Assembly: GCF_000768685.1 (NCBI RefSeq)
Contig: NZ_AVPK01000017.1
Span: forward strand, 1-34,955
Length of the DNA stretch: 34,955 bases
From: Knoellia subterranea KCTC 19937
Lineage (GTDB): Bacteria > Actinomycetota > Actinomycetes > Actinomycetales > Dermatophilaceae
Direction of reading: 5' to 3'
The first letter of the stretch is position 1; each line of letters starts with the position of its first letter. The position numbers and the translations under genes were made by a program. The notes beneath the pieces are model-generated. The model ran no database searches. It saw only the letters and a list, made by a program, of their open reading frames with translations, and was not told where the DNA came from. Below are positions 7,380-25,074 of the stretch, in pieces.

Positions 7380-7387
7380 GAGCCACC

Positions 7388-8536
7388 ATGCCCAAACGCA
7401 TCATGACCATCTATGGCACCCGGCCCGAGGCCATCAAGGTCGCTCCCGTCATCCGCGCCATCGAGGCCCACCCCGAGCTCGAGTCCATCACCGTCGTGAC
7501 GGGTCAGCACCGCGAGATGCTCGACCAGGTCAACGAGATCTTCGGCATCGTCCCGGACCACGACCTCGACGTCTTCGCCCACGGGCAGACGCTCAACGGC
7601 CTCATGGCCAAGGTCTTCGACCGCCTCGACCCGGTGCTCGAGTCCGTGGCGCCGGATGCCGTCGTCGTCCAGGGGGACACGTCGACCGTGGCGGCCGCAT
7701 CGATCGCGGCCTTCTATCGCCGCATCCCCGTCGTGCACGTCGAGGCCGGACTGCGCAGCGGTGACATCAACTCGCCCTTCCCGGAGGAGGCGAATCGCAA
7801 GCTGACGAGCCAGATCGCGGCCCTCCACCTCGCGCCGACATCGACCTCGTTCGACAACCTCGTGGGGGAGGCCATCGACCCGTCGACGATCGCGGTCACC
7901 GGCAACACCGTCATCGACGCGCTGCTCCACACCGTCCAACAGGAGATCCCGTACCACGACGACCGTCTGCTCGAGGCCGAGCAGGCCGGCCGTCCGATCG
8001 TTCTCGTCACGACCCACCGCCGCGAGAACTGGGGCGGCGCCATGGAGGGAGTCGGTCGTGCGCTGAAGCGGTTGGCGACGACGTACCCCGAGCACCTCTT
8101 CGTTCTCCCCGCACACCGCAACCCCATCGTGCGTGAGGCCGTGTTGCCGCAGATCGAGGGCCTGACGAACGTGCTCGTGACCGAGCCCCTGGCGTATGGC
8201 GAGTTCACCCGTCTCATGAAGGTCGCCACCATCGTCCTCACCGACTCCGGCGGCGTGCAGGAGGAGGCGCCGTCACTGGGCAAGCCCGTCCTCGTCATGC
8301 GCGAGAACACCGAACGGCCGGAAGCCGTCGAGGCCGGGACGGTCAAGCTCATCGGGACCGACGAGGAGCGGATCGTCGCGGAGGTGTCGCGACTCGTCGA
8401 CGACCCCACGGCATACGCGGAAATGTCGAACGCCGTGAACCCCTACGGTGACGGCGAGGCGGCAGCCCGCTCCGTCGCCGCGATCGCCCACCTCTTTGGT
8501 CTGGGAGAGCGGCTGCCGGACTTCGCGGCGAAGTAG
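7388..8536 (+). CDS. wecB: UDP-N-acetylglucosamine 2-epimerase (non-hydrolysing)
   Basis: 382 residues, the normal length. It interconverts UDP-GlcNAc and UDP-ManNAc in the cytoplasm. Family landmarks: Y-G-T-R-P-E-A (9-15), QGDTST with D97, HVEAGLR with E119, F-P-E-E-A-N-R (131-137), T-T-H-R-R-E-N-W-G (208-216) with H210 and E213, and D-S-G-G-V-Q-E-E (286-293). All expected catalytic and UDP-binding residues are present. It follows the ATPase by 8 bases with ATG at 7388. With wecC at 22768-24051 on the other strand it would make UDP-ManNAcA. UDP-ManNAc is also the usual precursor of teichoic-acid linkage units, so a role beyond the uronate is possible. Confidence 0.95.
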   Translation: MPKRIMTIYGTRPEAIKVAPVIRAIEAHPELESITVVTGQHREMLDQVNEIFGIVPDHDLDVFAHGQTLNGLMAKVFDRLDPVLESVAPDAVVVQGDTSTVAAASIAAFYRRIPVVHVEAGLRSGDINSPFPEEANRKLTSQIAALHLAPTSTSFDNLVGEAIDPSTIAVTGNTVIDALLHTVQQEIPYHDDRLLEAEQAGRPIVLVTTHRRENWGGAMEGVGRALKRLATTYPEHLFVLPAHRNPIVREAVLPQIEGLTNVLVTEPLAYGEFTRLMKVATIVLTDSGGVQEEAPSLGKPVLVMRENTERPEAVEAGTVKLIGTDEERIVAEVSRLVDDPTAYAEMSNAVNPYGDGEAAARSVAAIAHLFGLGERLPDFAAK

Positions 8537-8540
8537 GCCG

Positions 8541-11500
8541 GTGTCACCAGCTCACCCTCTCCAGTTGCCGGGGCGGCGATGGTTGGTGGGGATCGTCGTC
8601 CTCGGCCTCGTTGTTGCCGGGTCCCTGACGGCGGCACTCACGCGCGACGGATCGACGCCCCGCGGCGGTCACGTGTCGGCACCGGCAGATCGTCGGCTTC
8701 CTCCGGCGCCGCTGTCTGCGCTGTCCGGAGGTTTCGAAGGACAGCGTGCCCTCGATGGCGGTTGGACGGCGCAGGTGCCACAGGGTGCACGGGTCGAACT
8801 CACGACGCGCGAGGCACGGCGCGGCCAGAAGTCCTTGGTCGTCGACGGGTCTCGGGCCACAGCGGGACCCACGCTCGTGGTGAGTCCTTCGCAACCGGCA
8901 ACCGCCGGTCTTGAGTATGGCGCGGGCGCGTTCGCGCGTGTCACCACCGGACAGGCGTCCGTGCGCCTCGAGTTCCTCGACCACGCCGGCCGGCACGTCG
9001 GAACCCACCCGGCCGAGGCACAGGGTGCTTCGGGACTGTGGTCGCGCGCGACAGTGCGAGGGGTCGCGCCGGACGATGCTGCTCTCATGCGGGTCGTCCT
9101 CGTGACGGACTCTCGAGGTCGCACGTTGTGGGACGACATCGATCTCTGGACGAGTTTCCTCCCCGACGGCGGCTTCGAGGGTGAGGGAGAACCCCCCGGG
9201 TCCGCCCGCAACTGGTGGGTTTCCTCGGCCCGTGCTGGAGTGGTCGCCCGACGGGTCGCCGAGGGTGCGCGGACCGGGGTCGGCGCCCTCGAGCTCCGCG
9301 ATGAATCGGCCTCGGCCCTGGCTGCCGCGACCTCACGACTCATGCCGATCTCGCAGGGCGGCGAGCTCGAGATCCGCGGCTGGGTCCGCGGCTCTGTGAG
9401 CGGGTCCAGTCTCGGGGTGAAGTGGTATGACGACTCACGCACGCTGCTGGCTGGCCCTGGGAGGAATGCCCTTTCGGCTCAAGCGACAGGCTGGACCGAA
9501 CTCAGTCGTCGGATCGCCGTGCCGGATGGGGCCCGCTACGCACAGCTGGAGATCTCGACCTCCGCTCAGGGCAGGGGAGCAGGCGTCTGGGACGACCTGT
9601 CGATGCACCCCGTGGCTCCAGCGGAACGACCGGACGTCAGCGTGGAACCCGCTGCCGAAATGGAAGGCTTCGCCAACACGAAGAACTCTCTGGTGACAGT
9701 GGTCGACGGTGTGCCGAAGTTCTCGACGATGACGTCGGGCTCCCCAGCCGTGTTCCAGTTCGCCGATCTGCGGACCGGGAAGGTGGAGTTCACCCACGAG
9801 GTGCCGGGGATCCTCAACGGATGGGCGCTCGCGCACTCCCTCGACCATCGGACGATCTTCGTCGGAGGGAAGGGGACCGTCTGGCGGTTCGACACGCGAA
9901 CCCACGCGTTCACGGACCTCGGCAAGGTGAGCCCGCGAGCCACCCATGTGTTCGACATGGTCACGGCCCCGGACGGCCGCATCTGGGGTGGCAGCTACCC
10001 GGGGGGTGATGTCTGGAGCCTCGACCCCCGAACGGGACGCATCACGCCGGCGGGCAGTGTGGGAAACGACAACGACTACGCAAAGACCTTGGCCGTCGAC
10101 GACCGCTTCGTCTATGTGGGCACGGGCACGGTTCGGCCCAACATCGTGCAGATCTCCACGGCTGACACCCGGGTGCGCACACAGATCACGCCCCCAGCAC
10201 GCGTGCGTTCGGGCTTCCTCACCAGCCTGCAGGTGCATGCTGGCATGTTGTCGGTGATGTTTCCGGATGGCACGCGCGGTCTCTTCGACACGTCGGCACG
10301 ACGGTGGCTCGACACCGCGGCGCTCGCGAGCACCGGCAACCTGTTCCAGTCGCGATCAGAGGCGCCGCCCAGCTCGACGGCCTACTTCTTCCGGGACGAC
10401 CGGCTGTGGGAGGCCACCATCGGTCCGGGCGGGATGGTCGAGAAGGCCTTGGCCACGGTGCCCATCCCGCGCAACGTCAACAGTGGCGTGGCGCGGGTCG
10501 ACCTCGATGGGAGCGTGGCGGACTGGCTTCTGGCCTACGACTCACACACCACGGTCATCGCGGTGAAGATCGACGGCTCGGGGGCACCGGCGCGCGATGC
10601 GGATGGGAAGCTCCCGTCGGCCACCACCCGCGAGCTCACGATCCACCTCAAGCCGAACGCCCTGCGCATCAAGTCGCTCGGATCCGCCGACGGCACGGTC
10701 GTTGTCGGCGGTTATGGCGGTGCGAGCGTCTCCGTCCTCGATCCGGCCACCCTCGGGCGGCACGGCGCGCGGGGTCTGGAACAGGTCATCGGGGGAGCCA
10801 CTACGCCGAAGTTCTTCGGCGAGATCGAGGGCATGGCTACGAACGGTCGCTATCAGTTCTTCGGCACCTATCCCAAGAGCCGCATCTTCCGGCGGGACAT
10901 CACCAAGGCATGGGAGGGACGCACCAACCCGCGGATGCTGGCCGACCTGGGCGCGGAGACCGACGCTGACCGGCCCATCGCCTGGGCAGCCGCCGGGGCG
11001 CGGACGTACTTCGGCACGATCCCGGACTACGGCATCCGTGGGGGGACCATCGGGTGGTTCGAGGGGACGTCCTCGACTCCCGTGGTCGTCGAGCCGCCCG
11101 TCCCCGACCAGAGTGTCGTCGGACTGAGTGCAGGTGGGAGAAGGCTCTTCGGGTCGACGTCCCGCTGGGGAGGGCTCGGATCGCGACCGTCCGCCGGTCC
11201 TCCATCGGTCTTCGGCTACGACGTCGAAGGCAGGAAGCTCCAGTGGACCGTGACGCCGGACGCATCGGCACAGGCCATTGGTTCGGTCCTGTATGAGGAC
11301 GGGCGTCTGTGGGCGGCATCGCGCAACCGTGTGTTCCAGTTGGACCCGACGACGGGTCGGACGATCCGAACCCTGCCCCTGGGAATCCCGGGCGACCCGT
11401 CCAGTGACGACCCCAGCACGGAGAACCCGGACGACGGCGATCCAGCGGGGGCCACCTTTGCGTCGACGACCATGGTCAGTCGGGGTGGGTACCTCTACAT

Positions 11501-11654
11501 CGCTGCAGGTGGCCGCGTCATCCAGGTCGATCCCGGGACAGGGCAGACTCGGGTGGTGGCGAAGGACGGAGTGAGTCCAGCGAGGATCATCGCGGTGGGA
11601 GACGATCTCTTCTACCCGGCCACAACACTGTTGATGCGGGTGACGATCCGGTGA
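8541..11654 (+). CDS. Membrane-anchored protein with two carbohydrate-binding-like domains and a beta-propeller
   Basis: 1037 residues. A short basic cytoplasmic tail and one transmembrane anchor at about 14-33 place the rest outside. Residues ~60-203 and ~207-357 are two tandem CBM4/9-like jelly-roll domains; both open with GGFEG (63-67, 210-214) and close with W-D-D-I/L-x-L/M (197-202, 350-355). From ~375 onward come repeated propeller blades, for example blocks of the type V-W-R-F-D, W-S-L-D-P-R-T-G and F-Q-L-D-P-T-T-G-R-T. GTG 8541 follows the wecB stop by 4 bases and leaves the TM helix at a normal distance. No catalytic motif was identified, so a binding, scaffolding or assembly role on the exported glycan is more likely than hydrolysis. 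Lies within the export operon, so a link to that polymer is probable. Confidence 0.7.
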   Translation: MSPAHPLQLPGRRWLVGIVVLGLVVAGSLTAALTRDGSTPRGGHVSAPADRRLPPAPLSALSGGFEGQRALDGGWTAQVPQGARVELTTREARRGQKSLVVDGSRATAGPTLVVSPSQPATAGLEYGAGAFARVTTGQASVRLEFLDHAGRHVGTHPAEAQGASGLWSRATVRGVAPDDAALMRVVLVTDSRGRTLWDDIDLWTSFLPDGGFEGEGEPPGSARNWWVSSARAGVVARRVAEGARTGVGALELRDESASALAAATSRLMPISQGGELEIRGWVRGSVSGSSLGVKWYDDSRTLLAGPGRNALSAQATGWTELSRRIAVPDGARYAQLEISTSAQGRGAGVWDDLSMHPVAPAERPDVSVEPAAEMEGFANTKNSLVTVVDGVPKFSTMTSGSPAVFQFADLRTGKVEFTHEVPGILNGWALAHSLDHRTIFVGGKGTVWRFDTRTHAFTDLGKVSPRATHVFDMVTAPDGRIWGGSYPGGDVWSLDPRTGRITPAGSVGNDNDYAKTLAVDDRFVYVGTGTVRPNIVQISTADTRVRTQITPPARVRSGFLTSLQVHAGMLSVMFPDGTRGLFDTSARRWLDTAALASTGNLFQSRSEAPPSSTAYFFRDDRLWEATIGPGGMVEKALATVPIPRNVNSGVARVDLDGSVADWLLAYDSHTTVIAVKIDGSGAPARDADGKLPSATTRELTIHLKPNALRIKSLGSADGTVVVGGYGGASVSVLDPATLGRHGARGLEQVIGGATTPKFFGEIEGMATNGRYQFFGTYPKSRIFRRDITKAWEGRTNPRMLADLGAETDADRPIAWAAAGARTYFGTIPDYGIRGGTIGWFEGTSSTPVVVEPPVPDQSVVGLSAGGRRLFGSTSRWGGLGSRPSAGPPSVFGYDVEGRKLQWTVTPDASAQAIGSVLYEDGRLWAASRNRVFQLDPTTGRTIRTLPLGIPGDPSSDDPSTENPDDGDPAGATFASTTMVSRGGYLYIAAGGRVIQVDPGTGQTRVVAKDGVSPARIIAVGDDLFYPATTLLMRVTIR

Positions 11655-11687: not shown

Positions 11688-13739
11688 GTGATTGACGTGG
11701 ACAACACCGGGATGGCATTGCCGCGTAGCGGTGACTACTCCCGCTATCTGCCGAAGGTCCGCAGCTGGCGAAGTGTGGACGCGTTCCTCGCTGCACCGGT
11801 GCAGGATTGGGACGCTGGCGTCCACATCATGCACGGTGGAGCCGACGGGGAGCACTTCGACGTCCTGATCGGTGGTCGCCTGTGGACCGTCCGTCCTCGT
11901 CGCTGCGTGCCCATCTTCCTCACAGGGGCAGTGTCGACCCGGCAAGGTGCGCAGGGGCCGTTCTTCTCGGGCGTCAAGATCGCCGGTGAGGTCGGAACTC
12001 CGTTCGTGGCGATCAGTGACCCCACCCTGCGCGCCAGCCCGGATCTGGACCTGGGCTGGTACACGGGATCGGTGGGTGCGGGCATCCAGCAAGCGCTCAC
12101 GCGCCTGCTCGACGGCCTTGCCTCTCGCCTTGGTCGCGAGGTGCTTCTCATCGGGGGATCGGGAGGCGGATTCGCCAGTCTTGACCAGGCAACCCGGATG
12201 AGTGAGCCCGCATCGGCGTTGGTGTGGAATGCCCAGACCGACCTGTTGGACTACAGCCCCCCAGCCGTCGAGAAGTACCTGGCCGCCACGACCGCGACGT
12301 CTCGCGAAGTGGTGAGTGGATGGTCGCGAGAGGAGCGTTCGGCCCGTTTGCTGGCAGGCGGCATCGAGCACAGCGTGCGACGAGAGGCGCCGCCCGGGTC
12401 CGGGCGGCGGCGCGTCCTCTATCTCCAGAACGAGACCGATGACCATCTGGGCGAGCACGCACTCCCGTTCTTCGCCGCGACCGGCTGGCAGGAAGGACTC
12501 CGAGGTCGATGGCGCGACGACCGGGGCGGTGTCGCCGTCGTGGCACCCATGAGTCCGGGGCACGCGCCACCTCCGCGGGAAGTGCTGACGACCGCCCTTG
12601 GAGCACTGCTCGACTCACGAACTCCTGCGTCGGCTGTTGCGGACCACGTGGAGCAGAAGGGCCTCCTCGGATTGCCGGAAGATGCCTGGAAGGTGCGGAC
12701 CTTCCTGGTCGGAAGTTGCGTCTCACGCGACACCTTTGCGTTCCTGGATCCCGAGGTCTTTGCGCTCAAGGGGTACATCGCCCGTCAGAGTCTCATCAGC
12801 GCCTTCTCGGACGGTGCACATCCACTGGGTGACACGAGCACCCTCGCCAGTCGATTCCAGCGACGCATGATCGAGGGCGATGCAGCGTCCTCTTTGCCCG
12901 AGGACGTGCGAGCGGCTGCCACCGAGGTCGACCTCGTGGTCTGGGACCTGTTCGACGAACGGCTCGGGGTGCATCGTCGCGGTCCGACCGGGTTCACCAC
13001 GGACTCGGTGGAACTGCGTTCGCTGTTGGGTGGCGTGGCTCCCGCGGGGATCGAGCACGTTGCCTTCGGCACACCAGAGCACCATGCCTTGTTCGTGAAG
13101 GCGCTGGCGCCATGGCGTGAGTTGCTCGTCGAAACGAACCTGCTGGGGCGCACAGTGCTCGTCGCTCCGCGCTGGGCCGTCGAAGCCGATGACGGCGGGC
13201 TGACCCCGCGGAGCTTTGGCAGAACGGCAACGGAGGCCAACGCCCTCACCGAGCCCTATCTCAGGGCGGCTGTCGAAGTCCTCGGCGTTCCCGTGTTGGG
13301 GAGAGGTGGCCCTCTGCCACTGTCCGGATCCGAGCACCAGTGGGGCCCGGCGCCGTTCCACTACGACGACGCCACGTATGTGCGGCTCGCTGAGGAACTC
13401 GTCGCGGTCGCTCGACAGAAGCTGGGCGAGACCGCGGTCGATGGTCAGGGGGTGCGCGTTCCCAACAGAAGTGAGCGGGCAGCGCGGCGCAATGCACCGA
13501 CCCTGCGCCTGTCTCGCAGTGGCGATGAATTGCGGGTGACGCTCTTGGGTGGGGACCCCAAAGCGTGGTCCGTCCAGCTCTTCCGTGACGATGAAAGGGT
13601 CGCGTCAACGGGGTGGCAGACGGACCGAGACCTCTACCTCCCGCTGGCCGGGGAGGGCCGCTACCGCGCCAGAGCTCACCTACTGGACCGCGACGGAGGG
13701 CGCAGTCCTGTGGTCAGCGGAGTGCTCACCGTCTCCTGA
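11688..13739 (+). CDS. Fusion: alpha/beta-hydrolase, DUF6270 and C-terminal beta-sandwich
   Basis: 683 residues with three modules. Residues ~40-310 look like an alpha/beta-hydrolase with nucleophile elbow G-G-S-G-G (156-160, Ser158), an acidic segment N-E-T-D-D-H (247-252) and a late S-P-G-H (His292). Residues ~337-580 match DUF6270: G-S-C-V-S-R-D-T-F (342-350) near the start and H-Q-W-G-P-A-P-F-H-Y (550-559) near the end, an SGNH-like layout comparable to GSCFA proteins. Residues ~604-683 form a small beta-sandwich also seen in two neighbours. No signal peptide or TM. GTG 11688 has AGGCAGGA upstream; GTG 11697 is an alternative. Likely an acyl-transfer or ester-cleaving enzyme for the glycan, but the reaction is not known. 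The stop lies 17 bp from the convergent acetyltransferase stop. Confidence 0.72.
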   Translation: MIDVDNTGMALPRSGDYSRYLPKVRSWRSVDAFLAAPVQDWDAGVHIMHGGADGEHFDVLIGGRLWTVRPRRCVPIFLTGAVSTRQGAQGPFFSGVKIAGEVGTPFVAISDPTLRASPDLDLGWYTGSVGAGIQQALTRLLDGLASRLGREVLLIGGSGGGFASLDQATRMSEPASALVWNAQTDLLDYSPPAVEKYLAATTATSREVVSGWSREERSARLLAGGIEHSVRREAPPGSGRRRVLYLQNETDDHLGEHALPFFAATGWQEGLRGRWRDDRGGVAVVAPMSPGHAPPPREVLTTALGALLDSRTPASAVADHVEQKGLLGLPEDAWKVRTFLVGSCVSRDTFAFLDPEVFALKGYIARQSLISAFSDGAHPLGDTSTLASRFQRRMIEGDAASSLPEDVRAAATEVDLVVWDLFDERLGVHRRGPTGFTTDSVELRSLLGGVAPAGIEHVAFGTPEHHALFVKALAPWRELLVETNLLGRTVLVAPRWAVEADDGGLTPRSFGRTATEANALTEPYLRAAVEVLGVPVLGRGGPLPLSGSEHQWGPAPFHYDDATYVRLAEELVAVARQKLGETAVDGQGVRVPNRSERAARRNAPTLRLSRSGDELRVTLLGGDPKAWSVQLFRDDERVASTGWQTDRDLYLPLAGEGRYRARAHLLDRDGGRSPVVSGVLTVS

Positions 13740-13756
13740 CGACGAATTCGCCGAGG

Positions 13757-14788
13757 TCATTCCCGAGGCGTCACGGTGCCGAGGTATCCGTCATAGCCCA
13801 CAGATGAGGACCCGATGACCGTGGCTGGGATGCCGGCCACCACGGAGTCGTCGGGGACCTCCCGCGTGACGACAGCGTTGGATCCAACGACGACCCGATT
13901 CCCGATGCGCCCCCCGACACAGACGGCGTTGGCGCCGATGAAGACGTGGTCACCGATGACGGGGAGCACGTTGCCGCGCGCGCCAATGGTGACGTTCTGG
14001 CCGATCTTGCAGTTGCGACCGATCACGGCACGCGAGTGCACGACCACCCCGATGCCGCCGTAGCCAAAGCTTGTGCCGTCGCCGATCTCGGCGGTGAAGG
14101 GGATGACGCTGTTGAAGCGGGCGTGGATGAACCGCTTGACCGTGGTTGCCCCGTCGGTGAGGCCATTGAGGTGCAGCGTCCGGGAGAGCCGGTATGCCGT
14201 GACGGCGGTGTGCGCTTCCAGGGCCTTCGCGACCGTGGGGTGCAGAGTCCCACGAAGGGGAACCTCCTCGTAGTCGGCGACGCCAGTCGGCCGGCGACCC
14301 ACCCCGATGATCGGCCCGCTCGACACCGAGCTGTCGGGAGCGAGGACGGGAAGCCCGTGCACTTCAGCTCCGACGTGCCCCCGGTCCGGGTCGATCAGTC
14401 CGGCCACGGGCTGCGAGGACTGGAGGATGAGTGCGAGTGCGATCGACTGCGGACCGACTCCCCAGACGTGCACTGCGGCCGGAACACCGCCCTGGGGATC
14501 TCGAGGAGAACGGTGGACGAGGCTGTCCGACCGATGGGTTTGCGTGGTCCCGTCCGGGTGACGGACATAGACCCTGACGGTGAAGCGACCGGACGTGGCG
14601 AGGTTGAAGCGCGCCTGCGGTGTTCGTGACCACGCACGCCGCTCGAGAACGTCCTTTCCATGGATGAGGTAGAACGCGTAGGTGGCCCGGGGCGTCGGCT
14701 CGACCTCTGCCACGAGCTGGTGGAGATTCTCCACGCGAACGTCCACAGCCAACGCCTGATCGACGCCGCCGACCTCGTGGGATGTCAT
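13757..14788 (-). CDS. Left-handed beta-helix O-acetyltransferase with N-terminal beta-sandwich
   Basis: 343 residues. The C-terminal ~130 residues are hexapeptide repeats of a CysE/NeuD-type acetyltransferase: V-V-V-H-S-R-A-V-I-G with catalytic-type His251, then IGQNVTIGARG, IGDHVFIGANAVCVGG and IGNRVVVGSNAVVTREVP. Residues ~101-180 look like a Rossmann-type PglD/NeuD N-terminal domain (VHVWGVGPQS...). Residues ~1-92 are an added beta-sandwich resembling the C-termini of the proteins at 11688-13739 and 14788-17484; this extension is not normal for the family. ATG 14788 overlaps the upstream stop (TGATG). Predicted to acetylate a sugar of the glycan in the cytoplasm, using acetyl-CoA. Last gene of the minus-strand operon. 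Confidence 0.82.
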   Translation of the reverse strand: MTSHEVGGVDQALAVDVRVENLHQLVAEVEPTPRATYAFYLIHGKDVLERRAWSRTPQARFNLATSGRFTVRVYVRHPDGTTQTHRSDSLVHRSPRDPQGGVPAAVHVWGVGPQSIALALILQSSQPVAGLIDPDRGHVGAEVHGLPVLAPDSSVSSGPIIGVGRRPTGVADYEEVPLRGTLHPTVAKALEAHTAVTAYRLSRTLHLNGLTDGATTVKRFIHARFNSVIPFTAEIGDGTSFGYGGIGVVVHSRAVIGRNCKIGQNVTIGARGNVLPVIGDHVFIGANAVCVGGRIGNRVVVGSNAVVTREVPDDSVVAGIPATVIGSSSVGYDGYLGTVTPRE

Positions 14789-17484
14789 CAGTCCACCACC
14801 ACCCAGTCGGTGGTCCCTGCGATTGCCTCAACGTCGCCGGGGTTGCGGCCGAAGACCCTCACCCGGTATCGCCCGGCCGGAAGGTCGGTCCAGGTCAGAT
14901 AGGGCGACGGGCCGTACGGCAGGGCTGACACCAGTTCTCGATCCCGGAACAGGCGACCGGCATACTCCTTCCGGTTCCCCGCGACGACCATGGCTGTCAC
15001 GGAGGCTCCACGGCGGGTGGCGACGGCGGTGACTCCCCGGTCGGTATCGCCGTCGGTGCCGTTGTCCAACGACGAGAGGAACGCCGTCAGCGCTTCGCGG
15101 TAGACCGGCCCAATATCGGCGTGCCGAAGTCCGGGCAGGACCATGAGTGAGGCGTCCTGTCCCAGGTCGTTGAGGTGCTCGACGAATGGCAGCACGTGCC
15201 CCTTGTAGTGGTGGTCTGCGTCTCCGACAACGATGGAGATGGACGGGAAGGCACTCGCCTTGCTCGTCCCGTCTCCGGCCACCTCGGTGGCGAGGTCGTA
15301 GAGGGCGGCGTCCAGCTGGGCCACGTGCTCGGCGCCGGTACCGCCTGTCATCAATTCCAGGATGTTGGGGTGCGGCTTGGCGACGAAGGAACCGATCCGC
15401 GTTTGCGGTGCACCCACGAAGATGTGGCCTGCGCCGGCGGCCAGACCATGGATGAGGGCCCCCGTCCCGCCCTTCGAGGAGCCAACCGTGATGAGGTCGG
15501 CCGGGGTGAGGCCCAATTCGGTGAGTGTCTTTGCAATGAGGTCCTGGACCGTCGTGAAGATGCCGCGATCCCCGTGGTCCTGCAGGTAGTAGGCACCCTG
15601 GTCGCCGAAGTCGTCAAGGATGTACAGCGCGTGGAACGGAGTCTGATCCACGGTCGCCCGATAGTTGTAGGTGAAGTCGCCGGGCTGGTGAACCGCAGTG
15701 AACACGACGATGAGGTGTCCGGAACCAGCCGCCGAGCGAGCCGGAACCTGCTGATAGTTCAGGCCCACCTGGCCCTCGAAGCGCTGCCAGTGTTGCTTCG
15801 GATCCACGAGGCCGCGATCGCGGTAGGCGAAATCCCCGAGACGCATGATCGTCCGCACCTCGAGTGACGCACCACGGAACGCCACCCGGACGACATTGGC
15901 AGGTTCGGACTCTCCGAAGGCCGGGAAGCGCCACCCCAGATGCGTCGGGCGTGACTGGCCCCTGCGCACGCTCAGGCTGAGCGGGACGGGAGCCTCGATC
16001 GTGGCATCGAGCAGTTTGATCCCGTCGTGATACAGCTCGAATCCGTGGCCATGCGCGACCACGTCGACCTCCGGTCCGATGTTCCACAGGAGTTCGTATG
16101 CCGCGTCGTCACCTTGGCGGGTCACGCGGTCGAGGACCTCGATCCGCGTGATGCCGTCCGGCTCGTCGATGGTGAGAGTGCGTTCGTGCACCGTGTCCAC
16201 CAAGCGGGCGTTGCGCCCCGTGACGGTGAAGCCGTCGGCTCGGACCGAATCGGCGGACATCGTCACGGTGTCGAGAGGGCCGCCGGTGCGGGGGATGCTC
16301 GTGCCGTTGACCACGAGCGTGTTGTGGGCGAATTGGGAGTAGCCGTAGCGCGTCAGGGGATCCTGATAGTTGTAACCGTGCGGGCCAGCCTCGCTGATGA
16401 GGTCCACGCCGCCGCTGCGCACCACGAAAGAGTTCTCGTCGGCGTGCTTGTGATAGCCGTCGTTGTAGGCGCACTGAAAGAAGACAAACGTGGCCTTGTC
16501 GTCACCCCAGGCCGAACGGTAGGCCGCGTAACCGGAGTGGGGGAGGACGAGAACCCGCTCCGAAGGGCGAGTGCCCTCTCTCCCCGTGGTCGCGGCGTAG
16601 GTGAACTCGGGGTCACCAAAGATGGAGGTGGCGCCGACGAGCGAAACCTGCTGCGTGTCGCTCACCGGAGGGAAGACGCCATTGGGCATCACGGCATGGG
16701 TCGCGTACACCGAGAGGTTGTGCATGAGGTCGTCGAAGCGTTGCGTGTCCTCGTGCGAGATGGCGTGGAGAACCTCGACGAACTCCTTCACCGAGCGCGA
16801 CACCATCACGTGGTAGGTGGGGGTGTTCTCGACGTGAACCCCCTCGGCCGTGAAGCAGGCCAGGAAGTAGGCCCTGAGGCGTTCGATGGCCCGCTCGAGG
16901 AAGAGCGCTCTGTCGGCCTGCGTGCGCCACGTCGCCAGACCTGCGTAGGTGACGAGGGAGAGGTCCTGGAACATCCCGTGGTTGTTCAGACCGGCATGGA
17001 AGTCGTTGTCGTGGAGCAACTCCGCCGTGCGGTCAAGGAAGCCCTTGTACCAAGCGAGGTCCTCGGGAGAGAGGTGCTCCTCGAAGACCGGCAGAAGCGC
17101 GAGATGGACGGTGAGCCGCTGCGCCGTGGTCTCGTCGTGGTAGGCCATGCCCGAGTCTTCGGACGGTTGCGGGAACTGCTGCTCCCACCGGCGAGTGAGG
17201 TCGAGAACCTGCGAGGCGACGTCGGCAGGCTCTGCATGTGTGGAGACGTAGTTCGGAAGGTCGGGGAGGAACAGGAAGCCGTGGATGAAGCGCGCCCGAG
17301 ACCTCTCCGATTCGGTCGACCACACACGGCCAGAATCCAGCGGCATGTCGCCGAATCGTGGAGATTCGATCACGCCCTGCTCGATGAGTCGTCGGGCTCG
17401 GTCTCGCTGCTGCTGCGAGTTGCCGGACGGCAGTCGGCGCCGGACGAGCGCCGACAGGGCCTCGAGTTGGCTTGGCCCGATCAT
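14788..17484 (-). CDS. Fusion: heparinase II/III-like lyase, alpha/beta-hydrolase and beta-sandwich
   Basis: 898 residues. An alpha-toroid (~10-320) with N-N-H-G-M-F (167-172) and E-N-T-P-T-Y-H (219-225) and a beta-sheet domain with H-K-H-A-D-E-N-S-F (345-353) and A-H-N-T-L-V-V-N-G (386-394) match the heparinase II/III (alginate-lyase-type) fold, with candidate catalytic Asn/His/Tyr present. Residues ~585-806 are an alpha/beta-hydrolase with G-S-S-K-G (668-672, Ser670), D755/D757 and L-R-H-A-D (His788). Residues ~817-898 are the small beta-sandwich shared with neighbours. ATG 17484 overlaps the upstream stop (ATGA) and gives the shortest sensible N-terminus. There is no signal peptide, so it should act in the cytoplasm. 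Substrate is presumably the locus's uronate-containing glycan; that is inference. Confidence 0.8.
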   Translation of the reverse strand: MIGPSQLEALSALVRRRLPSGNSQQQRDRARRLIEQGVIESPRFGDMPLDSGRVWSTESERSRARFIHGFLFLPDLPNYVSTHAEPADVASQVLDLTRRWEQQFPQPSEDSGMAYHDETTAQRLTVHLALLPVFEEHLSPEDLAWYKGFLDRTAELLHDNDFHAGLNNHGMFQDLSLVTYAGLATWRTQADRALFLERAIERLRAYFLACFTAEGVHVENTPTYHVMVSRSVKEFVEVLHAISHEDTQRFDDLMHNLSVYATHAVMPNGVFPPVSDTQQVSLVGATSIFGDPEFTYAATTGREGTRPSERVLVLPHSGYAAYRSAWGDDKATFVFFQCAYNDGYHKHADENSFVVRSGGVDLISEAGPHGYNYQDPLTRYGYSQFAHNTLVVNGTSIPRTGGPLDTVTMSADSVRADGFTVTGRNARLVDTVHERTLTIDEPDGITRIEVLDRVTRQGDDAAYELLWNIGPEVDVVAHGHGFELYHDGIKLLDATIEAPVPLSLSVRRGQSRPTHLGWRFPAFGESEPANVVRVAFRGASLEVRTIMRLGDFAYRDRGLVDPKQHWQRFEGQVGLNYQQVPARSAAGSGHLIVVFTAVHQPGDFTYNYRATVDQTPFHALYILDDFGDQGAYYLQDHGDRGIFTTVQDLIAKTLTELGLTPADLITVGSSKGGTGALIHGLAAGAGHIFVGAPQTRIGSFVAKPHPNILELMTGGTGAEHVAQLDAALYDLATEVAGDGTSKASAFPSISIVVGDADHHYKGHVLPFVEHLNDLGQDASLMVLPGLRHADIGPVYREALTAFLSSLDNGTDGDTDRGVTAVATRRGASVTAMVVAGNRKEYAGRLFRDRELVSALPYGPSPYLTWTDLPAGRYRVRVFGRNPGDVEAIAGTTDWVVVD

Positions 17485-18215
17485 CGATCTGCTCGGGTCG
17501 TCTGTATCGCCGTCGCCAGGTAGCGGTATGCGTCGTCGGTGTAGTGGAAAGGACTCGGGCCCCACTTGTGGTCACGGCTGGAGAGGGCGAGGTCCTCAGG
17601 GAGTTCGACGATGGTGAAGCCCAACCTCGAGAGGACGTCGAAGTAGCGGGCGTAGATCGTGTTTGCCTCCACGGGCGGCGTCATCCAGTCCGGAACGGGA
17701 ACCGCGCCACCGTCATCCAACTGATCCGCCCACGGGGTGCGGAGAACCACCGTCCTGTCGAACAGGTTCAGCTCCTGCAACCGGTCCGCAACCCGTCTGA
17801 TGGCAGGTGTCCAGAGATCGAAGTGCTCCTCGGACCCGAGGGCGACGTGTCGATGCCCCCTCAAGGTCTCGCGCCCTCCGGCGGACCAGATCTCGGCCAG
17901 CTTGGTGACAAAGCCGTCGCCGACCTCGATCACGCCACCCCGCTCATCGACGAGGTCCATGAGGAGGACCTCGATCTCGGGGGCCAGCCTTTCGGCGACA
18001 GCGAGGAAGTCTCCGCGGACATCGCCTCCGACCATGCGGTTCTGGAAGGCCGAGGGGAGGGTGTTGAGTTGCTTCTGCAGGCCGTGCACGGGCGACCCGA
18101 CGCTGATCGCCGACTGTCGTGCGACGTAGGTGAGCAATCGCCAGTCTTCAGGCAGGAACTCGAAGGTGTCCCGCGAGACACAACTGCCGTAGATCAGCAC
18201 CCTTGTCTCGCTCAT
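17481..18215 (-). CDS. DUF6270-family protein, stand-alone
   Basis: 244 residues, a single domain. G-S-C-V-S-R-D-T-F (10-18) sits at the end of the first beta-strand and D-H-K-W-G-P-S-P-F-H-Y (215-225) near the C-terminus, as in the second module of the protein at 11688-13739; blocks such as Y-V/I-A-R-Q-S also agree. Layout and motif spacing suggest an SGNH-like fold, with the GSC motif replacing GDS and a late His, as in GSCFA proteins, but activity is unproven. No signal peptide. ATG 18215 overlaps the stop of the multi-glycosyltransferase (ATGA), and its own stop overlaps the lyase-hydrolase start (ATGA), so the proteins are probably made in fixed proportion. Likely modifies the polymer, perhaps with the hydrolase module encoded next. 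Confidence 0.8.
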   Translation of the reverse strand: MSETRVLIYGSCVSRDTFEFLPEDWRLLTYVARQSAISVGSPVHGLQKQLNTLPSAFQNRMVGGDVRGDFLAVAERLAPEIEVLLMDLVDERGGVIEVGDGFVTKLAEIWSAGGRETLRGHRHVALGSEEHFDLWTPAIRRVADRLQELNLFDRTVVLRTPWADQLDDGGAVPVPDWMTPPVEANTIYARYFDVLSRLGFTIVELPEDLALSSRDHKWGPSPFHYTDDAYRYLATAIQTTRADR

Positions 18216-21200
18216 GAGGAGGTCACCGTGGGGGACAGGAGGGTGATCAGCCGATCGAGGACGGCACCTTCCTCGAAACGGGCGACGCTCTCGGCGCGAT
18301 AGCCCTCGGGGTCGCGCTCCTCCGAGGCAATGCGCTCGACGATGTCGTTGACGGTCGCGCTCAGCCATGCCCGCGGGTAGACGAGGTCGGCACCGTCCCA
18401 GCCGATGACCGCCGGAAGGGCACGGCTCGCGGCACCATCGGCGATGGTCAGGTGGAACGACTCGAAGTCGCTGACCGACAGCACCACGCCGACCTTCTGG
18501 TACCACTCCGCCATGTCATTGCCGTGCCCGTCGAAGACCACGGCCCCGGGGCGGCGCGCGTTGAGGGCCTTGATGCGCACGTATTGCGCCTCGTACCACG
18601 CGAACTCATGGGGTCGATCCTTCATCCACGGGTAGTCCTCGGGTCCTTTGCCCTTGATCCTCAGGGTGTGGGGGAGCCCGCGCGCCTCGAGTGCCTCAAT
18701 CACGTCGAGGGCGAGATCGAGTCTCTTGCGGGCGGGAACCGTGCCGACGAAACCGATGCTGGTCGCGGCGCCCTCAGACTTGGGCAGGTCCAGGCCGTCG
18801 GTGTCGACGAGGTTGGGTACGACGACGCTCTTGTCCGCCGGGACGCCGTGGCTCTGGATCGCTGCCTGACGGACGAGCTCACCGACGAAGACGTACTTCG
18901 CAATGCGGTCGTGATTGATGCGACGCAGATAGGGGAGGGTCAGTTCCTGCAGGTGAACGCGCACGACGACGTGCTGGCCGGGGCGCGCGTGCTCCGAATA
19001 CCAGACGGCGTTGCCGAGTCCCCACTCACAGAGGATGACGTCCGCCTGCTGCAGCAGCTCAAGTGATCGCTGCTCGTCATGCGCCGTGTGCGAGGTCCAT
19101 TGATCCAGCTCGACGTGCGCCCCCTGCGCGCGCAACTCCTCGATGAGCGACGTGGCGAACTTGAGGTCATGGCCGGCGATGACGACCCGAAGTCCCGCGA
19201 TGCGCGCGGTCGGGCCCTCGATGGGCTCGCGAGCCGAAATCGCCTCTGGTGCAACCGAACTCATGACCGAGGGGAAGCGGAGGAGCACCCCGTCGGAACC
19301 CTGGGCGGTCAGGGCAGTGTCGAGGTCCGGATGCCTTGCCGCGGCGGTCGTCGACACGAGTCCCGACCGCGTCCCTCCCGCCGTCGTCCGCTCGGCAAGG
19401 GGGACTCCCGCCAGCAGGTCCGAATCCACGGAGTCGACGATCCGTTCCCACGGCCCGAAGGCCTCCGCGTGGAGGAGGTCCTCGAAGCGCGTTCGCGACA
19501 CGGCCTCACCGAGCCTGCCGACGAACGTGGCAGACGTCCCCGGTATGCCGGTGCCGTCCCACGGCTGCACGCGCGTGACCTCCCGGTCGAAGGCCGACGC
19601 AACCTGCTCGAGTGCGTCGGCACTGACGAAGACGTCGGCCGGCGGCACCGACTGTGCGGCCAGGGACCGCAGGACGGGAGCTTCGACGGAATCGAGCACC
19701 ACGGCATACGAGGGTCGTGCGGGTCCGGCGACAGGAAGGCCTGCGGTCCGGGCGACGATCGTCAGGGCCGCGTCGACCGTGTGGGACCGCAGCACCGCGC
19801 GCATCTGGAGCCAGGCTTCCGCGAGCCGGGCCTGCGGGTCGGTCGCCCAGGAACGCAGGAGAGCGCGCCACACCAGAGGGTCGGCCGACGTGGGGATGAC
19901 CGACCCGAAGGTCTCGTCGATCCCGCGACCCGGGCCCGACAGAACGACGCCGCCACTCGCAGCGACCTCGACGACCCGCCGCGAGAACATGCTCGGCGAG
20001 TCGGCGACGGAGTTGACGTTGAGGTTGGCGAGGTGAGCCTTGTAGGAGTCGATGACCTCGGAGTACGGCAGCGAGCCGCGCACGTTGCCGCGGAAGGCCG
20101 GTGGGAAGCGATAGGGCGAGTCCGGGTTCGACGCCTGACGGTCATAGATCGTCAGGCCGAACGGGCGGCTCGTCTCGAGCAGCAGTGACAGTTCCTTGGA
20201 CCGCTTGGCATACCGCTCGCCGTAGAACGTCCCGGCGTAGGCAACCGAGTGCTCATAGGGCAGGGCGCCGGCCAGCGGGTTGTGGATCTTCGGCTCTGCA
20301 TAGAACGGCAGGGCAGACGCCGTGCGGACCTCGCCCACCCCGGCCTTGAGGTAGGGCTGGATGCGACCGGCATCGGTCGTGAAGACGTGATCACACAGGG
20401 ATGCCGTCGCGACGAACCGCTGGAAGTGGATCGGGTCTTCCTTGTTCCAGAAGACCGACGGGACGCCGAGTTCGCGCGCGCGGGTGAGCAGCGCAACGAC
20501 GTCGGCGTGCTCCTCGTCGTCGTAGCGCCCGACCCCGCGGTGCCACGTGCCGCCGTTGCCGTTCCATGCGGATTCGACGAAGACGAGGTCGAGGCCGTCG
20601 AGCTGCTCGCGCCACCCGTGCCGATCCAGCGGAACGACGTGCAGGGAGGCTGACAGGGTCTCGGTGGTGAACTCGTCGGCGATCAGTCCGACACGGAGCG
20701 TCGAGAGTTGCCGTCCGCTTCCGACGGATTCGGTATGCCGGGTGCTCGCCTCCCGATGCACCCCGCCGATCGTCGTGGCGAGCCTGTCCCAGCTGCGCTC
20801 GTCGAGGCACCACAGGCGCCCCGTTCGCCCCAGGTCGGCACGCAGGTCGGGTGTGTCGATGAGCCGTTGCAGCACGTCGGCCAGCGCGGTGGAGTCGCCG
20901 GCGGGGAACAGCAGGGCGCGTGCCTCATCGGCGCCGGCGATGTCGCGGTGGGGAGCCACGTCGGACAGGACGACGGCCTTGGCGCTGCTCATCGCCTCGA
21001 GCGGCTTCAGCGGCGAGACCATCTCGGTGACCGGCAGGGAGTGCCGTGGGCAGGGCATGATGTCGAACAGGCTGAGCAGGCGCGGCATGTCGGCGCCGGG
21101 AACTCGACCGACGAATCGAACGGTCTCGGCCAGATCCAACTGCTCGACCTGTTCGGCGAGGGCCTTTGCGGCAGAGCCGGATCCGGCGATCACGACCTGG

Positions 21201-22711
21201 AAGTCGACCTCGCGTTCACGGAGCGTGGCAGCGGCCTCCACGAGGGTGTCCAGCCCTTCGTAGGGCACCATGCTCCCCGCGAACCCGATGACGGGCACGT
21301 CCGTGCGGACGCCGAGCTTCCCGGCATACGCCATGTCCTTGGGAAGCGGGAGGAACTCCCGCGGCGTCACCGCGTTCGGCGCGAGGGTGATGCGTTCGGA
21401 CGGCACACCGCGCCGGACGAGTTCGTCGCGCGTCTGGCGCGTGATGGCCAGAACACTGTCGGCCTCGGTCGCCACGAGGGTCTCCAAAGAGACCTGAACG
21501 GCGTAGCGCTCCGAGGAGTCCCAGCCCGGCTTGTTGGATGCCTCGGTGATCTCCCACAGGCCGCGCACTTCGTAGACGAAGGGGATGCCGAGACGTCGTG
21601 CGGCGATCAGCGCCGCAAGGCCCACCCGGAAGTTCGACGCGGACTGGATCACGCTGGGGCGCTGGAGGCGTGCCTCCCGGACGAAGGCGTCCGCGCACTC
21701 GAGGATCCAACGGTCGGCGGGAGTGGGCGCCAGCGCGCTTCCGGGGAGGTGGACGTAGGTGACGTCGTCGACGGGGACCTCGTGGCGGGTGGTGGTCCGC
21801 GGCTTGACGTCGGCCTTGGTGTCCCAGGGGTAGCCGGCTCGCCCCACCACGACGACGTCGCTGCCGGCGTCACGCAGGCCGGAGGCGACTCCCTGCGTGC
21901 GGACCGAATAGCCGTTGGTGTTGTAGGCCGGGGTGGAGTGAACGCAGTACATGATGCGTCCGGGCTCCGGCAGATAGGCCGCTCCGGGGGCGCGGGGCGG
22001 GACGGGGATCCCGTCCCTGAGGATGCGATCGCCGGCAAGGATGCGCTCGGCGAGTTCGCTGCTCCGGGCGTCGAGTTCGACCGCCACGTCGGCGTGCTCA
22101 CGAAGCATTGCCGCCGGGGTGCTGAGCAGACCGCGGTCGTACCAAGCGCGCGTGAGGACGTGGCCCAGCCGCTCTGGGGTCCGCTGGTCGTGGAACCGCC
22201 CGACAAGCTCCTCGAAGGAATACTCCCTCAGCTTCCGTTCGGGTTGGGCGGGAGTCGGCCCATGCCCATTCGCAGGCGGTGGAGTGCTCGGCACCGACTT
22301 GCTGGGTGCCTTCGACGTTGAGGAATGGGGATCGGCCGTCAATTGCTTGGGTGCCGGAGCCTCGGTGCCCGGGCGGAACAGGGCCATCGGCTTGGTGAGC
22401 GTGCGCCCGATGCGGTAGGCCCGACCGGTGCGCAACCTCTTGAGGTCAGCCTTGAGCCGCTTCGATTCGGCACGGTAGGCATCGAGCGCGGCAGTTGAGC
22501 TTCCGAGCCGTCGCTTCAGGTCCTTGTTGTCGCGCCGGAGCTGCTTGAGTTCCTTTGCATCCTTCTCGGCCTGCTTGAGCTTGCCGCGTGCAACTCGGTC
22601 TCGCCTGCGGAGGTCCTCGAACCGGACCCGGAGGTCCTCCGGATCGCTCATCAAGTCCGCAAACAGCCGCCGCGTGAGGTCGGCTTGGTTGCGACGCTCG
22701 TCGTCGTGCAC
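18212..22711 (-). CDS. Giant multi-domain glycosyltransferase (coiled coil, GT4, CgeB-like, GT4)
   Basis: 1499 residues. A Lys/Arg/Glu-rich coiled coil (~25-95) and a Pro/Ser linker (~115-160) are followed by GT4 module 1 (~250-640; N-G-Y-S-V-R-T, V-Y-E-V-R-G, A-P-N-A-V, S-P-L-K-P-L-E-A-M), a CgeB/DUF3880-like module (~670-990; F-V-E-S-A-W, F-W-N-K-E-D-P, L-N-V-N-S-V-A-D-S-P-S-M), a degenerate GT-A-like segment (~1000-1165) lacking a clear DXD, and GT4 module 2 (~1172-1495; V-V-V-P-N-L-V-D, F-V-G-T-V-P-A-R-K-R-L). Module 1 is paralogous to the enzyme at 3798-5585; the CgeB-like plus GT-A part is paralogous to the whole protein at 31735-33651. GTG 22711 has GGGGA upstream. A processive or sequential polymerase is plausible. 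Confidence 0.85.
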   Translation of the reverse strand: MHDDERRNQADLTRRLFADLMSDPEDLRVRFEDLRRRDRVARGKLKQAEKDAKELKQLRRDNKDLKRRLGSSTAALDAYRAESKRLKADLKRLRTGRAYRIGRTLTKPMALFRPGTEAPAPKQLTADPHSSTSKAPSKSVPSTPPPANGHGPTPAQPERKLREYSFEELVGRFHDQRTPERLGHVLTRAWYDRGLLSTPAAMLREHADVAVELDARSSELAERILAGDRILRDGIPVPPRAPGAAYLPEPGRIMYCVHSTPAYNTNGYSVRTQGVASGLRDAGSDVVVVGRAGYPWDTKADVKPRTTTRHEVPVDDVTYVHLPGSALAPTPADRWILECADAFVREARLQRPSVIQSASNFRVGLAALIAARRLGIPFVYEVRGLWEITEASNKPGWDSSERYAVQVSLETLVATEADSVLAITRQTRDELVRRGVPSERITLAPNAVTPREFLPLPKDMAYAGKLGVRTDVPVIGFAGSMVPYEGLDTLVEAAATLREREVDFQVVIAGSGSAAKALAEQVEQLDLAETVRFVGRVPGADMPRLLSLFDIMPCPRHSLPVTEMVSPLKPLEAMSSAKAVVLSDVAPHRDIAGADEARALLFPAGDSTALADVLQRLIDTPDLRADLGRTGRLWCLDERSWDRLATTIGGVHREASTRHTESVGSGRQLSTLRVGLIADEFTTETLSASLHVVPLDRHGWREQLDGLDLVFVESAWNGNGGTWHRGVGRYDDEEHADVVALLTRARELGVPSVFWNKEDPIHFQRFVATASLCDHVFTTDAGRIQPYLKAGVGEVRTASALPFYAEPKIHNPLAGALPYEHSVAYAGTFYGERYAKRSKELSLLLETSRPFGLTIYDRQASNPDSPYRFPPAFRGNVRGSLPYSEVIDSYKAHLANLNVNSVADSPSMFSRRVVEVAASGGVVLSGPGRGIDETFGSVIPTSADPLVWRALLRSWATDPQARLAEAWLQMRAVLRSHTVDAALTIVARTAGLPVAGPARPSYAVVLDSVEAPVLRSLAAQSVPPADVFVSADALEQVASAFDREVTRVQPWDGTGIPGTSATFVGRLGEAVSRTRFEDLLHAEAFGPWERIVDSVDSDLLAGVPLAERTTAGGTRSGLVSTTAAARHPDLDTALTAQGSDGVLLRFPSVMSSVAPEAISAREPIEGPTARIAGLRVVIAGHDLKFATSLIEELRAQGAHVELDQWTSHTAHDEQRSLELLQQADVILCEWGLGNAVWYSEHARPGQHVVVRVHLQELTLPYLRRINHDRIAKYVFVGELVRQAAIQSHGVPADKSVVVPNLVDTDGLDLPKSEGAATSIGFVGTVPARKRLDLALDVIEALEARGLPHTLRIKGKGPEDYPWMKDRPHEFAWYEAQYVRIKALNARRPGAVVFDGHGNDMAEWYQKVGVVLSVSDFESFHLTIADGAASRALPAVIGWDGADLVYPRAWLSATVNDIVERIASEERDPEGYRAESVARFEEGAVLDRLITLLSPTVTSS

Positions 22712-24157: not shown

Positions 24158-24247
24158 ATGCCTTCGTGCCCGGCCTCGACGACCACTTCAATCTTGGGTG
24201 CGGCACCGGCCCGAGACTGGCCCACCGGCTGCGAGCTTCGTGCGTGA
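24158..24247 (+). CDS. Possible leaderless 29-codon leader ORF, coupled to the hydrolase-like gene at 24244
   Basis: ATG at 24158 opens 29 codons ending in TGA at 24245-24247, which overlaps the GTG of the next gene (GTGA at 24244-24247). It begins six bases after TAGGAT. The peptide has two cysteines (4 and 25) and a Ser/Thr run but no recognisable domain, and it is unrelated in sequence to the leader at 2463 despite identical length and layout. It may serve to bring ribosomes to the downstream start. Expression is inferred from geometry only. Confidence 0.35.
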   Translation: MPSCPASTTTSILGAAPARDWPTGCELRA

Positions 24248-25020: not shown

Positions 25021-25074
25021 TGTTGAGTTGTGATCGTGCCGATGACAGGAGCCACGCAAGATGAGGGGACGGAT

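What the first reader, a model, noticed from the sequence alone, without database searches (positions are those of the whole stretch)
11688..18215. One three-part toolkit (alpha/beta-hydrolase, DUF6270, beta-sandwich) arranged differently on two facing operons
On the plus strand, hydrolase, DUF6270 and a C-terminal beta-sandwich are one 683-residue chain. On the minus strand, DUF6270 is a separate protein whose gene overlaps, by ATGA, a gene for lyase plus hydrolase plus beta-sandwich. The hydrolase module recurs a third time at 24244-24990. Fusion in one place and translational coupling in the other is strong guilt-by-association evidence that hydrolase and DUF6270 act in one step. By fold both could form acyl-enzyme intermediates, so a two-enzyme glycan acylation, deacylation or transfer system is a reasonable hypothesis. 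I know of no described function for this pair.
Basis: partly seen in the sequence, partly recalled or inferred. Interest (0 to 1): 0.75.

Follow-up and report, generated by a model that had tools for sequence, protein, structure and literature searches.

The report
Paired glycan-acylating domains in capsule-type locus
An actinobacterial surface-sugar gene cluster carries two kinds of enzyme domain, probably sugar acylators, that evolution has joined and separated several times; one kind looks like a cousin of a known capsule O-acetyltransferase and the other (DUF6270, function unknown) looks like an acyl-transfer enzyme using a cysteine.

Summary
The anatomy is real. The + strand 683-aa chain is ABH (alpha/beta-hydrolase fold) - DUF6270 - beta-sandwich; the minus operon is GT - DUF6270 - [heparinase-ABH-sandwich] - [sandwich-LbH acetyltransferase], all three junctions overlapping. 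The third ABH (24244-24990) is a degenerate copy (Cys for Ser, Asp/His part missing). 'Hydrolase' is probably a misnomer: ABH modules are relatives of the meningococcal capsule O-acetyltransferase CsaC/SacC and of Asp2 and keep the CsaC-type Ser-Gln-Asp-His-His. DUF6270 models at pLDDT 97.9; its best PDB match is the SGNH O-acetyltransferase PatB. Its conserved Block-I residue is Cys (GSC), not Ser, and Cys and His224 tend to be lost together. In 396 genomes of the order ABH and DUF6270 co-occur strongly (47 of 53 ABH genomes; among heparinase genomes 22 of 32 with DUF6270 versus 3 of 65 without), fused in both orders, with at least 9 changes of fusion state. But DUF6270 also fuses to sulfotransferase, GT2 and LbH domains, often occurs without a clear ABH, and has lost its Cys in 4 of 22 fusion rows while ABH is intact in all 22. 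So: two polymer-decorating modules, ABH the constant O-acetyltransferase, DUF6270 a mix-and-match second acylator. One shared catalytic step is not supported.

The parts
11688..13739 (+). 683-aa fusion gene: ABH O-acetyltransferase-like domain + DUF6270 + sandwich
   Evidence: AlphaFold pLDDT 94.0, pTM 0.80
11724..12656 (+). ABH module A (aa 13-323); predicted site S158, Q183, D251, H253, H292
12690..13409 (+). DUF6270 module of the fusion (aa 335-574), GSC and HQWGPAPFHY motifs intact
   Evidence: Pfam PF19786
13479..13736 (+). beta-sandwich tag of the fusion (aa 598-683)
   Evidence: mostly strands in the model
17481..18215 (-). stand-alone DUF6270 gene (244 aa); C12, D87, H216, W218, H224
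   Evidence: model pLDDT 97.9
14788..17484 (-). heparinase II/III-like + ABH module B + sandwich gene (898 aa; ATGA overlap with DUF6270)
15019..15735 (-). ABH module B, CsaC/SacC-like; predicted site S670, Q694, D757, H759, H788 (898-aa numbering)
   Evidence: SacC 1.2e-7; XcbB/CpsF NCBIfam 4.4e-11, below its cut-off
14794..15051 (-). beta-sandwich tag of the heparinase-ABH protein
13757..14788 (-). 343-aa sandwich + left-handed beta-helix (hexapeptide) acetyltransferase, TGATG overlap with the gene before it
18212..22711 (-). 1499-aa multi-domain glycosyltransferase, upstream of and overlapping DUF6270 by ATGA
24244..24990 (+). third ABH module, degenerate: Cys at the nucleophile position, Asp/His part absent
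8448..11654 (+). propeller-like protein (DUF6923 just over its cut-off; 'propeller' is inference) with one N-terminal hydrophobic stretch, directly upstream of the fusion gene
5582..8536 (+). ABC-2 permease, ABC ATPase and UDP-GlcNAc 2-epimerase genes, same strand, upstream

Best explanation
This is a polymer-decorating module set of an ABC-transporter-type exopolysaccharide/capsule locus. The ABH modules are acetyl-CoA-dependent glycan O-acetyltransferases of the CsaC/Asp2 type: Ser158 (module A) takes the acetyl group from acetyl-CoA, with His292 and Asp251 and the extra Gln183/His253 pair, and passes it to a sugar hydroxyl of the polymer in the cytoplasm before export. DUF6270 is a second acyl-transfer module of SGNH-like fold whose nucleophile is probably Cys12 with His224; it probably puts an acyl group on another position or sugar of the same polymer. 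The ~85-aa sandwich, carried by three enzymes of the locus, probably ties them to the same polymer or complex. Fusion and operon linkage then reflect decoration of one polymer by several enzymes, not one shared catalytic step. Shown by computation: architecture, homology, residue conservation, co-occurrence, repeated change of fusion state, predicted fold. Inferred: location, donor, acceptor, order of reactions, Cys as nucleophile, role of the sandwich.
For: ABH: module B matches SacC/CsaC (1.2e-7) and NCBIfam XcbB/CpsF (4.4e-11 but below its cut-off); the family profile A5 matches SacC 1.3e-10, Asp2 5.2e-8, XcbB/CpsF 2.8e-5, and its alignment puts Ser, Gln, Asp, His, His on SacC S114, Q138, D198, H201, H228 (counted on the printed chain). 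S, Q, D, H, H invariant in 11 of 11 A-type rows; S, D, H in 57 of 60 ABH rows. CsaC transfers acetyl from acetyl-CoA via acyl-Ser114, with D198, H228 and a Q138/H201 extension (PMC7501274, passages); Asp2 O-acetylates GlcNAc (PMC5578698, passages). DUF6270: model pLDDT 97.9, pTM 0.93; of 18 Foldseek PDB matches with E <= 0.001, 17 are entries named esterase, hydrolase, lipase or acyltransferase, PatB first (5.8e-6), and one is a designed scaffold. Cys12 kept in 82 of 85; of 6 Cys-less rows among 119, Ser11 stays in all 6, and His224 is lost in 4, unaligned in 1 and kept in the one with Ser for Cys; in 20 survey stretches all 15 with GSC keep His224, though 3 of them lack His216. A simple hydropathy scan finds no membrane-like stretch in five proteins of the set (the two ABH proteins, DUF6270, the LbH protein, the GT: highest 19-residue means 1.1-1.6, versus 2.5 in the propeller-like protein), so a cytoplasmic acyl-CoA pool is the natural donor. 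Linkage.
Against: A-type ABH rows alone match SacC only at 0.014 (Asp2 2.2e-5); the better score comes from a profile that includes two module-B-type rows. Foldseek on the fusion model brings up esterases and peptidases, and CsaC is not in the 50 rows shown, so hydrolysis is not excluded. DUF6270 shows no sequence similarity to SGNH proteins (HHalign probability 2.8%; no relevant PDB sequence match), TM-scores are only about 0.5, and the SGNH Asp of DxxH is absent. I had no coordinates, so C12 and H224 were not shown to meet in space. The ABH profile was seeded from DUF6270 loci. Donor and acceptor are untested.
Confidence: 0.55

Rival explanations
1. ABH and DUF6270 are two halves of one reaction: an acyl group is loaded on one domain and handed to the other (relay).
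For: Fusions in both orders (12 ABH-DUF6270 and 10 DUF6270-ABH rows); 47 of 53 ABH genomes have DUF6270; MBOAT-SGNH acyl relays exist (PMC12148441, start of the abstract in the search listing). In the window both sites are intact.
Against: 4 of 22 fusion rows have a DUF6270 without its Cys, 3 of them also without His224; DUF6270 also fuses to sulfotransferase, GT2 and LbH domains; up to 32 of 79 DUF6270 genomes lack a clear ABH.
Confidence: 0.12
2. DUF6270 is a non-catalytic polymer-binding or positioning domain for whichever decorating enzyme it is attached to.
For: Partners of several kinds; degenerate in some ABH fusions while ABH is intact in 22 of 22.
Against: Cys12, D87, H216, W218 and His224 are kept in 82-85 of 85 rows, and Cys with His224 in 18 of 22 fused and 89 of 97 unfused rows, six of the eight unfused misses having alignment gaps but no other letter for the Cys; binding alone does not require this.
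Confidence: 0.13
3. ABH and DUF6270 are glycan esterases that trim or recycle acylated polymer, next to a heparinase-like lyase.
For: Foldseek neighbours include many esterases for both; heparinase-fold partner.
Against: The nearest sequence relatives with known function are transferases; no membrane- or signal-like hydrophobic stretch (simple scan only); neighbours are export and glycosyltransferase genes.
Confidence: 0.15
4. Mere co-inheritance of exopolysaccharide genes without functional link.
For: The locus type itself is shared; the ABH profile was seeded from such loci; genomes in the survey are related.
Against: 22 of 32 versus 3 of 65 among heparinase genomes; fusion state changes at least 9 times on the tree.
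Confidence: 0.05

Closest known systems
CsaC/SacC capsule O-acetyltransferase of Neisseria meningitidis serogroup A (PDB 6YUO) and the XcbB/CpsF family
   Same: ABH family; Ser, Gln, Asp, His, His in register; locus with a UDP-GlcNAc 2-epimerase and ABC export genes (that CsaA is such an epimerase).
   Different: Module A is fused to DUF6270, module B to a heparinase fold; sandwich tag; A-type rows alone match SacC only weakly (0.014).
Asp2 of the accessory Sec system (PF16929; GlcNAc O-acetyltransferase)
   Same: Related by profile (PDB 6LNW 2.2e-5 with the A-type profile); glycan O-acetylation by a Ser-Asp-His triad (PMC5578698, passages).
   Different: Asp2 works with accessory Sec protein export; no accessory Sec gene turned up among the window proteins scanned (not every ORF was scanned).
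SGNH acyltransferases, e.g. PatB (PDB 7TJB)
   Same: Best fold match of DUF6270 (5.8e-6); nucleophile at the end of strand 1 and His before the last helix, by position.
   Different: Cys for Ser, no Block-V Asp, no MBOAT partner among the window proteins scanned, no membrane-like stretch, no sequence similarity.
WcbI (putative capsule acetyltransferase, Cys14 bound to CoA)
   Same: A capsule-locus protein with a Cys at a strand end bonded to CoA and a partner proposed to be needed (PMC4104973, passages).
   Different: No sequence relation found (Pfam scan of P0001 returns DUF6270 only) and not among the 50 fold matches shown: an analogy only.

Membership tests
CsaC/Asp2-type ABH glycan O-acetyltransferase (modules A and B) | sequence homology to a characterised member | tested here: met
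   B: SacC 1.2e-7. A-type rows alone: Asp2 2.2e-5, SacC 0.014, so clearly met for B, moderately for A
CsaC/Asp2-type ABH glycan O-acetyltransferase (modules A and B) | Ser-Asp-His triad plus CsaC-type Gln/His extension | tested here: met
   11 of 11 A-type rows; module B has S, Q, D, H, H. Tyr79 of CsaC was not tested
CsaC/Asp2-type ABH glycan O-acetyltransferase (modules A and B) | acetyl-CoA dependent transfer to a glycan | not testable with these tools
   needs enzyme assay
CsaC/Asp2-type ABH (third module, 24244-24990) | catalytic triad | tested here: not met
   Cys at the Ser position; Asp/His part absent
SGNH hydrolase superfamily (DUF6270) | SGNH fold | tested here: met
   Foldseek: 17 of 18 matches with E <= 0.001 are entries named esterase, hydrolase, lipase or acyltransferase; TM about 0.5 only
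SGNH hydrolase superfamily (DUF6270) | Block I Ser (GDS) | tested here: not met
   GSC; Cys in 82 of 85
SGNH hydrolase superfamily (DUF6270) | Block V DxxH | tested here: not met
   His224 in 84 of 85, but Ala or Ser at the Asp place in 78 of 85
SGNH hydrolase superfamily (DUF6270) | sequence-profile similarity | tested here: not met
   HHalign probability 2.8% against 24 GDSL domains of the genus
PF19786 DUF6270 | Pfam gathering score | tested here: met
   209 and 233 bits versus 27.5

The most novel reading that the evidence does not exclude
DUF6270 founds a family of soluble, Cys-nucleophile SGNH-fold glycan acyltransferases (using acyl-CoA directly, without a membrane MBOAT/AT3 partner), and its repeated fusion with CsaC-like acetyltransferases, sulfotransferases and LbH acetyltransferases makes dual-specificity decorating enzymes that write two modifications on one polymer in a fixed ratio or pattern.
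Probability: 0.35. Interest if true: 0.75.

Novelty: new variant of a known kind. Interest (0 to 1): 0.55.

Why it matters
It gives a testable function to DUF6270, for which a full-text search of the held library found no paper, and to an A-type ABH group that matched no Pfam or NCBIfam model. If right, it adds a soluble acyl-transfer route with a cysteine nucleophile to the known glycan O-acylation systems and shows how decorating enzymes are shuffled as domains. Named catalytic residues make it directly testable.

Tried and rejected
TAL-effector hits of the ABH-B region are, where printed, sums of many weak repeat matches (about 1-7 bits each); rejected. Engineered or unrelated PDB hits of the fusion model (3tp4, 2x2y; rmsd above 25) are spurious; rejected. 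Sequence-profile search for SGNH kinship of DUF6270 found nothing; the fold assignment rests on structure prediction alone. A relation to WcbI was considered and not found. Phmmer of the whole 683-aa chain, of DUF6270 and of the third module against PDB sequences gave nothing useful. The plasmid search found 3 distant DUF6270 records (22-28% identity); not followed. 'ATGA coupling' as special evidence was rejected because all three junctions of the operon overlap. Paper searches for XcbB and CsaC follow-ups listed nothing on 9HVZ.
Full report
What is there. The window is the whole of contig C10 (34,955 bases) of a 3.57 Mb genome. On the + strand an ABC-2 permease, an ABC ATPase, a UDP-GlcNAc 2-epimerase, a propeller-like protein with one N-terminal hydrophobic stretch and the 683-aa gene follow one another. 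The 683-aa chain is ABH (aa 13-323), DUF6270 (335-574) and sandwich (598-683). Facing it on the minus strand: glycosyltransferase, DUF6270 (244 aa), heparinase-ABH-sandwich (898 aa from ATG 17484), sandwich-LbH acetyltransferase. All three junctions of this operon overlap (ATGA, ATGA, TGATG), so overlap says 'one operon', not 'DUF6270 plus hydrolase'. The third ABH copy (24244-24990) is homologous to module A (6e-10) but has Cys for the Ser and no Asp/His part.

The arrangement is not a one-off. In Phycicoccus sp. Root101 (L014) the same set recurs: DUF6270, heparinase-ABH-sandwich, sandwich-LbH, and facing them ABH-DUF6270-sandwich and the propeller-like gene; Aestuariimicrobium (L073) has propeller-like, ABH-DUF6270-sandwich and a facing heparinase-ABH-sandwich. 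In a genome of the window's genus (G008) the order is reversed, DUF6270-ABH, beside another DUF6270 gene that overlaps a heparinase gene. In the tree the minus-strand DUF6270 of the window groups with L014's and with the DUF6270-ABH fusions of Terrabacter (L015) and G008 (95% SH-aLRT), so the unfused copy has close fused relatives.

The 'hydrolase' is probably an O-acetyltransferase. Module B matches PDB SacC/CsaC (1.2e-7), NCBIfam XcbB/CpsF (4.4e-11, below its cut-off) and, below its cut-off, Pfam Asp2. A profile of 16 ABH rows matches SacC 1.3e-10, Asp2 5.2e-8 and XcbB/CpsF 2.8e-5; 11 A-type rows without module B match Asp2 2.2e-5 and SacC 0.014. In the alignment the family Ser, Gln, Asp, His and last His stand on SacC S114, Q138, D198, H201 and H228, the residues that the CsaC paper describes (PMC7501274, passages); S, Q, D, H, H are present in 11 of 11 A-type rows and in module B. 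CsaC forms an acetyl-Ser and passes it to assembled polysaccharide; Asp2 O-acetylates GlcNAc (PMC5578698, passages). The fusion model (pLDDT 94.0, pTM 0.80) places Ser158 at a strand-helix turn; Foldseek gives mostly ABH esterases and peptidases, which supports the fold, not the function.

DUF6270. The model (85 rows) has pLDDT 97.9 and pTM 0.93. PatB is the best PDB match (5.8e-6); 17 of 18 matches with E <= 0.001 are entries named esterase, hydrolase, lipase or acyltransferase, one is a designed scaffold. The SGNH nucleophile sits at the end of strand 1 in Block I and the His in Block V near the C-terminus (PMC9487903, passages; that the motif reads GDS is also seen in 24 of 24 GDSL domains printed). 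DUF6270 has 'GSC' there (strand 4-10, helix 12-18) and His224 just before the last helix (227-242). Cys12 is kept in 82 of 85, His224 in 84 of 85. The scan that fetched most rows used GSCVSRD as one of its two patterns, so I checked 20 stretches picked, mostly from the low-scoring end, out of the hits of the Pfam-based survey: 15 of 20 keep GSC, all 15 of these keep His224, and 3 of the 15 lack His216. Over the 119 rows, 6 lack the Cys (E, G, S, G, P, A); Ser11 stays in all 6; His224 is lost in 4, unaligned in 1, and kept in the one that has Ser for Cys. This points to Cys12 and His224 as partners and to Ser11 as structural. It is inference; no coordinates were available. Sequence methods see no SGNH kinship.

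Association. From 396 genomes of the order (79 with DUF6270 over the cut-off; 53 with ABH at 60 bits or more out of 77 with any match at E <= 0.001), both occur in 47, DUF6270 alone in 32, ABH alone in 6, neither in 311; by genus 19 of 21 ABH genera are among the 28 DUF6270 genera of 107; pairs lie within 500 bp in 12 genomes (10 genera), within 10 kb in 27 (17), within 40 kb in 45. Of the 32, at least 5 (G417, G486, G574, G575, G708) have a weaker ABH match within 10 kb of DUF6270, so 32 is an upper bound. Control for locus type: of 97 heparinase genomes at E <= 0.001 (92 over the cut-off), ABH is in 22 of 32 with DUF6270 and 3 of 65 without. In the wider phylum DUF6270 is rare: 3 of 396 genomes. 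In 77 named loci found with a DUF6270 query, 34 have an ABH in the stored stretch and 12 a fusion; some stretches are short, so these are lower bounds. Caveats: the ABH profile came from DUF6270 loci; genomes are related; the named and survey samples overlap (L014 and L136 appear to be one contig by length).

Fusions. 22 rows: 12 ABH-DUF6270, 10 DUF6270-ABH (21 if L014 and L136 are one). ABH keeps S, Q, D, H, H in 22 of 22. DUF6270 loses Cys in 4 of 22 (L084, L137, L138, L139), all in DUF6270-ABH order. On a quick tree of 85 DUF6270 rows, 15 of them fused to ABH, the fused state needs at least 9 changes and the partner kind at least 15 (only 22 of 82 inner branches are starred at 95%; gain and loss cannot be told apart). 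DUF6270 is also fused to sulfotransferase domains in 8 loci over a Pfam cut-off (L036, L041, L042, L044, L046, L047, L051, L060) and one below it (L068), to GT2 in two (L035, L056) and to an LbH domain in one (L033; Pfam Hexapep below its cut-off) (20 DUF6270-containing ORFs were scanned).

Reading. ABH is the constant catalyst; DUF6270 is a movable partner that usually, not always, keeps its own site. The simplest account is several modifications of one polymer by soluble enzymes before ABC export (that CsaC acts before export is recalled; that it acts on assembled polysaccharide is), with the sandwich (18 domains over the loci searched, 3 in this window) as a shared attachment module. One shared catalytic step is possible in the window, where both sites are intact, but is not what the family shows. 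I found no paper naming DUF6270 (full text of the held library only).

Noticed in passing
window 13757-14788, 14788-17484, 11688-13739: The same ~85-aa beta-sandwich (Y_Y_Y-like, below the Pfam cut-off) is attached to three different enzymes of the locus, N-terminal on one and C-terminal on two; likely a shared targeting or assembly tag.
   Followed up: partly
window 24244-24990 and 25030-25503: Degenerate third ABH copy (Cys for Ser, no Asp/His part), followed by an ORF of 157 aa without any Pfam match.
   Followed up: partly
L036, L041, L042, L044, L046, L047, L051, L060; L035, L056: Promicromonospora, Isoptericola and Krasilnikoviella DUF6270 proteins carry sulfotransferase domains; two further Promicromonospora loci (L035, L056) carry GT2 domains instead.
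   Followed up: partly
L084, L137, L138, L139: DUF6270 domains fused in front of ABH that lost the Cys (three also His224), while ABH stays intact: probable pseudo-enzyme partners; L138 has Ser instead and keeps the His.
   Followed up: partly
window 34161-34499: Partial Lipase_GDSL_2 match (40 bits, profile 42-168) near the contig end, + strand, with a similar one in G008.
   Followed up: no
window 30895-31725: TupA-like ATP-grasp protein (PF14305, 57.8 bits) between glycosyltransferase genes.
   Followed up: no
L088, L089, L090: Clostridial (Ruminococcus-type) contigs carry DUF6270 proteins, in L088 and L090 as tandem pairs, on long branches away from the other rows.
   Followed up: no
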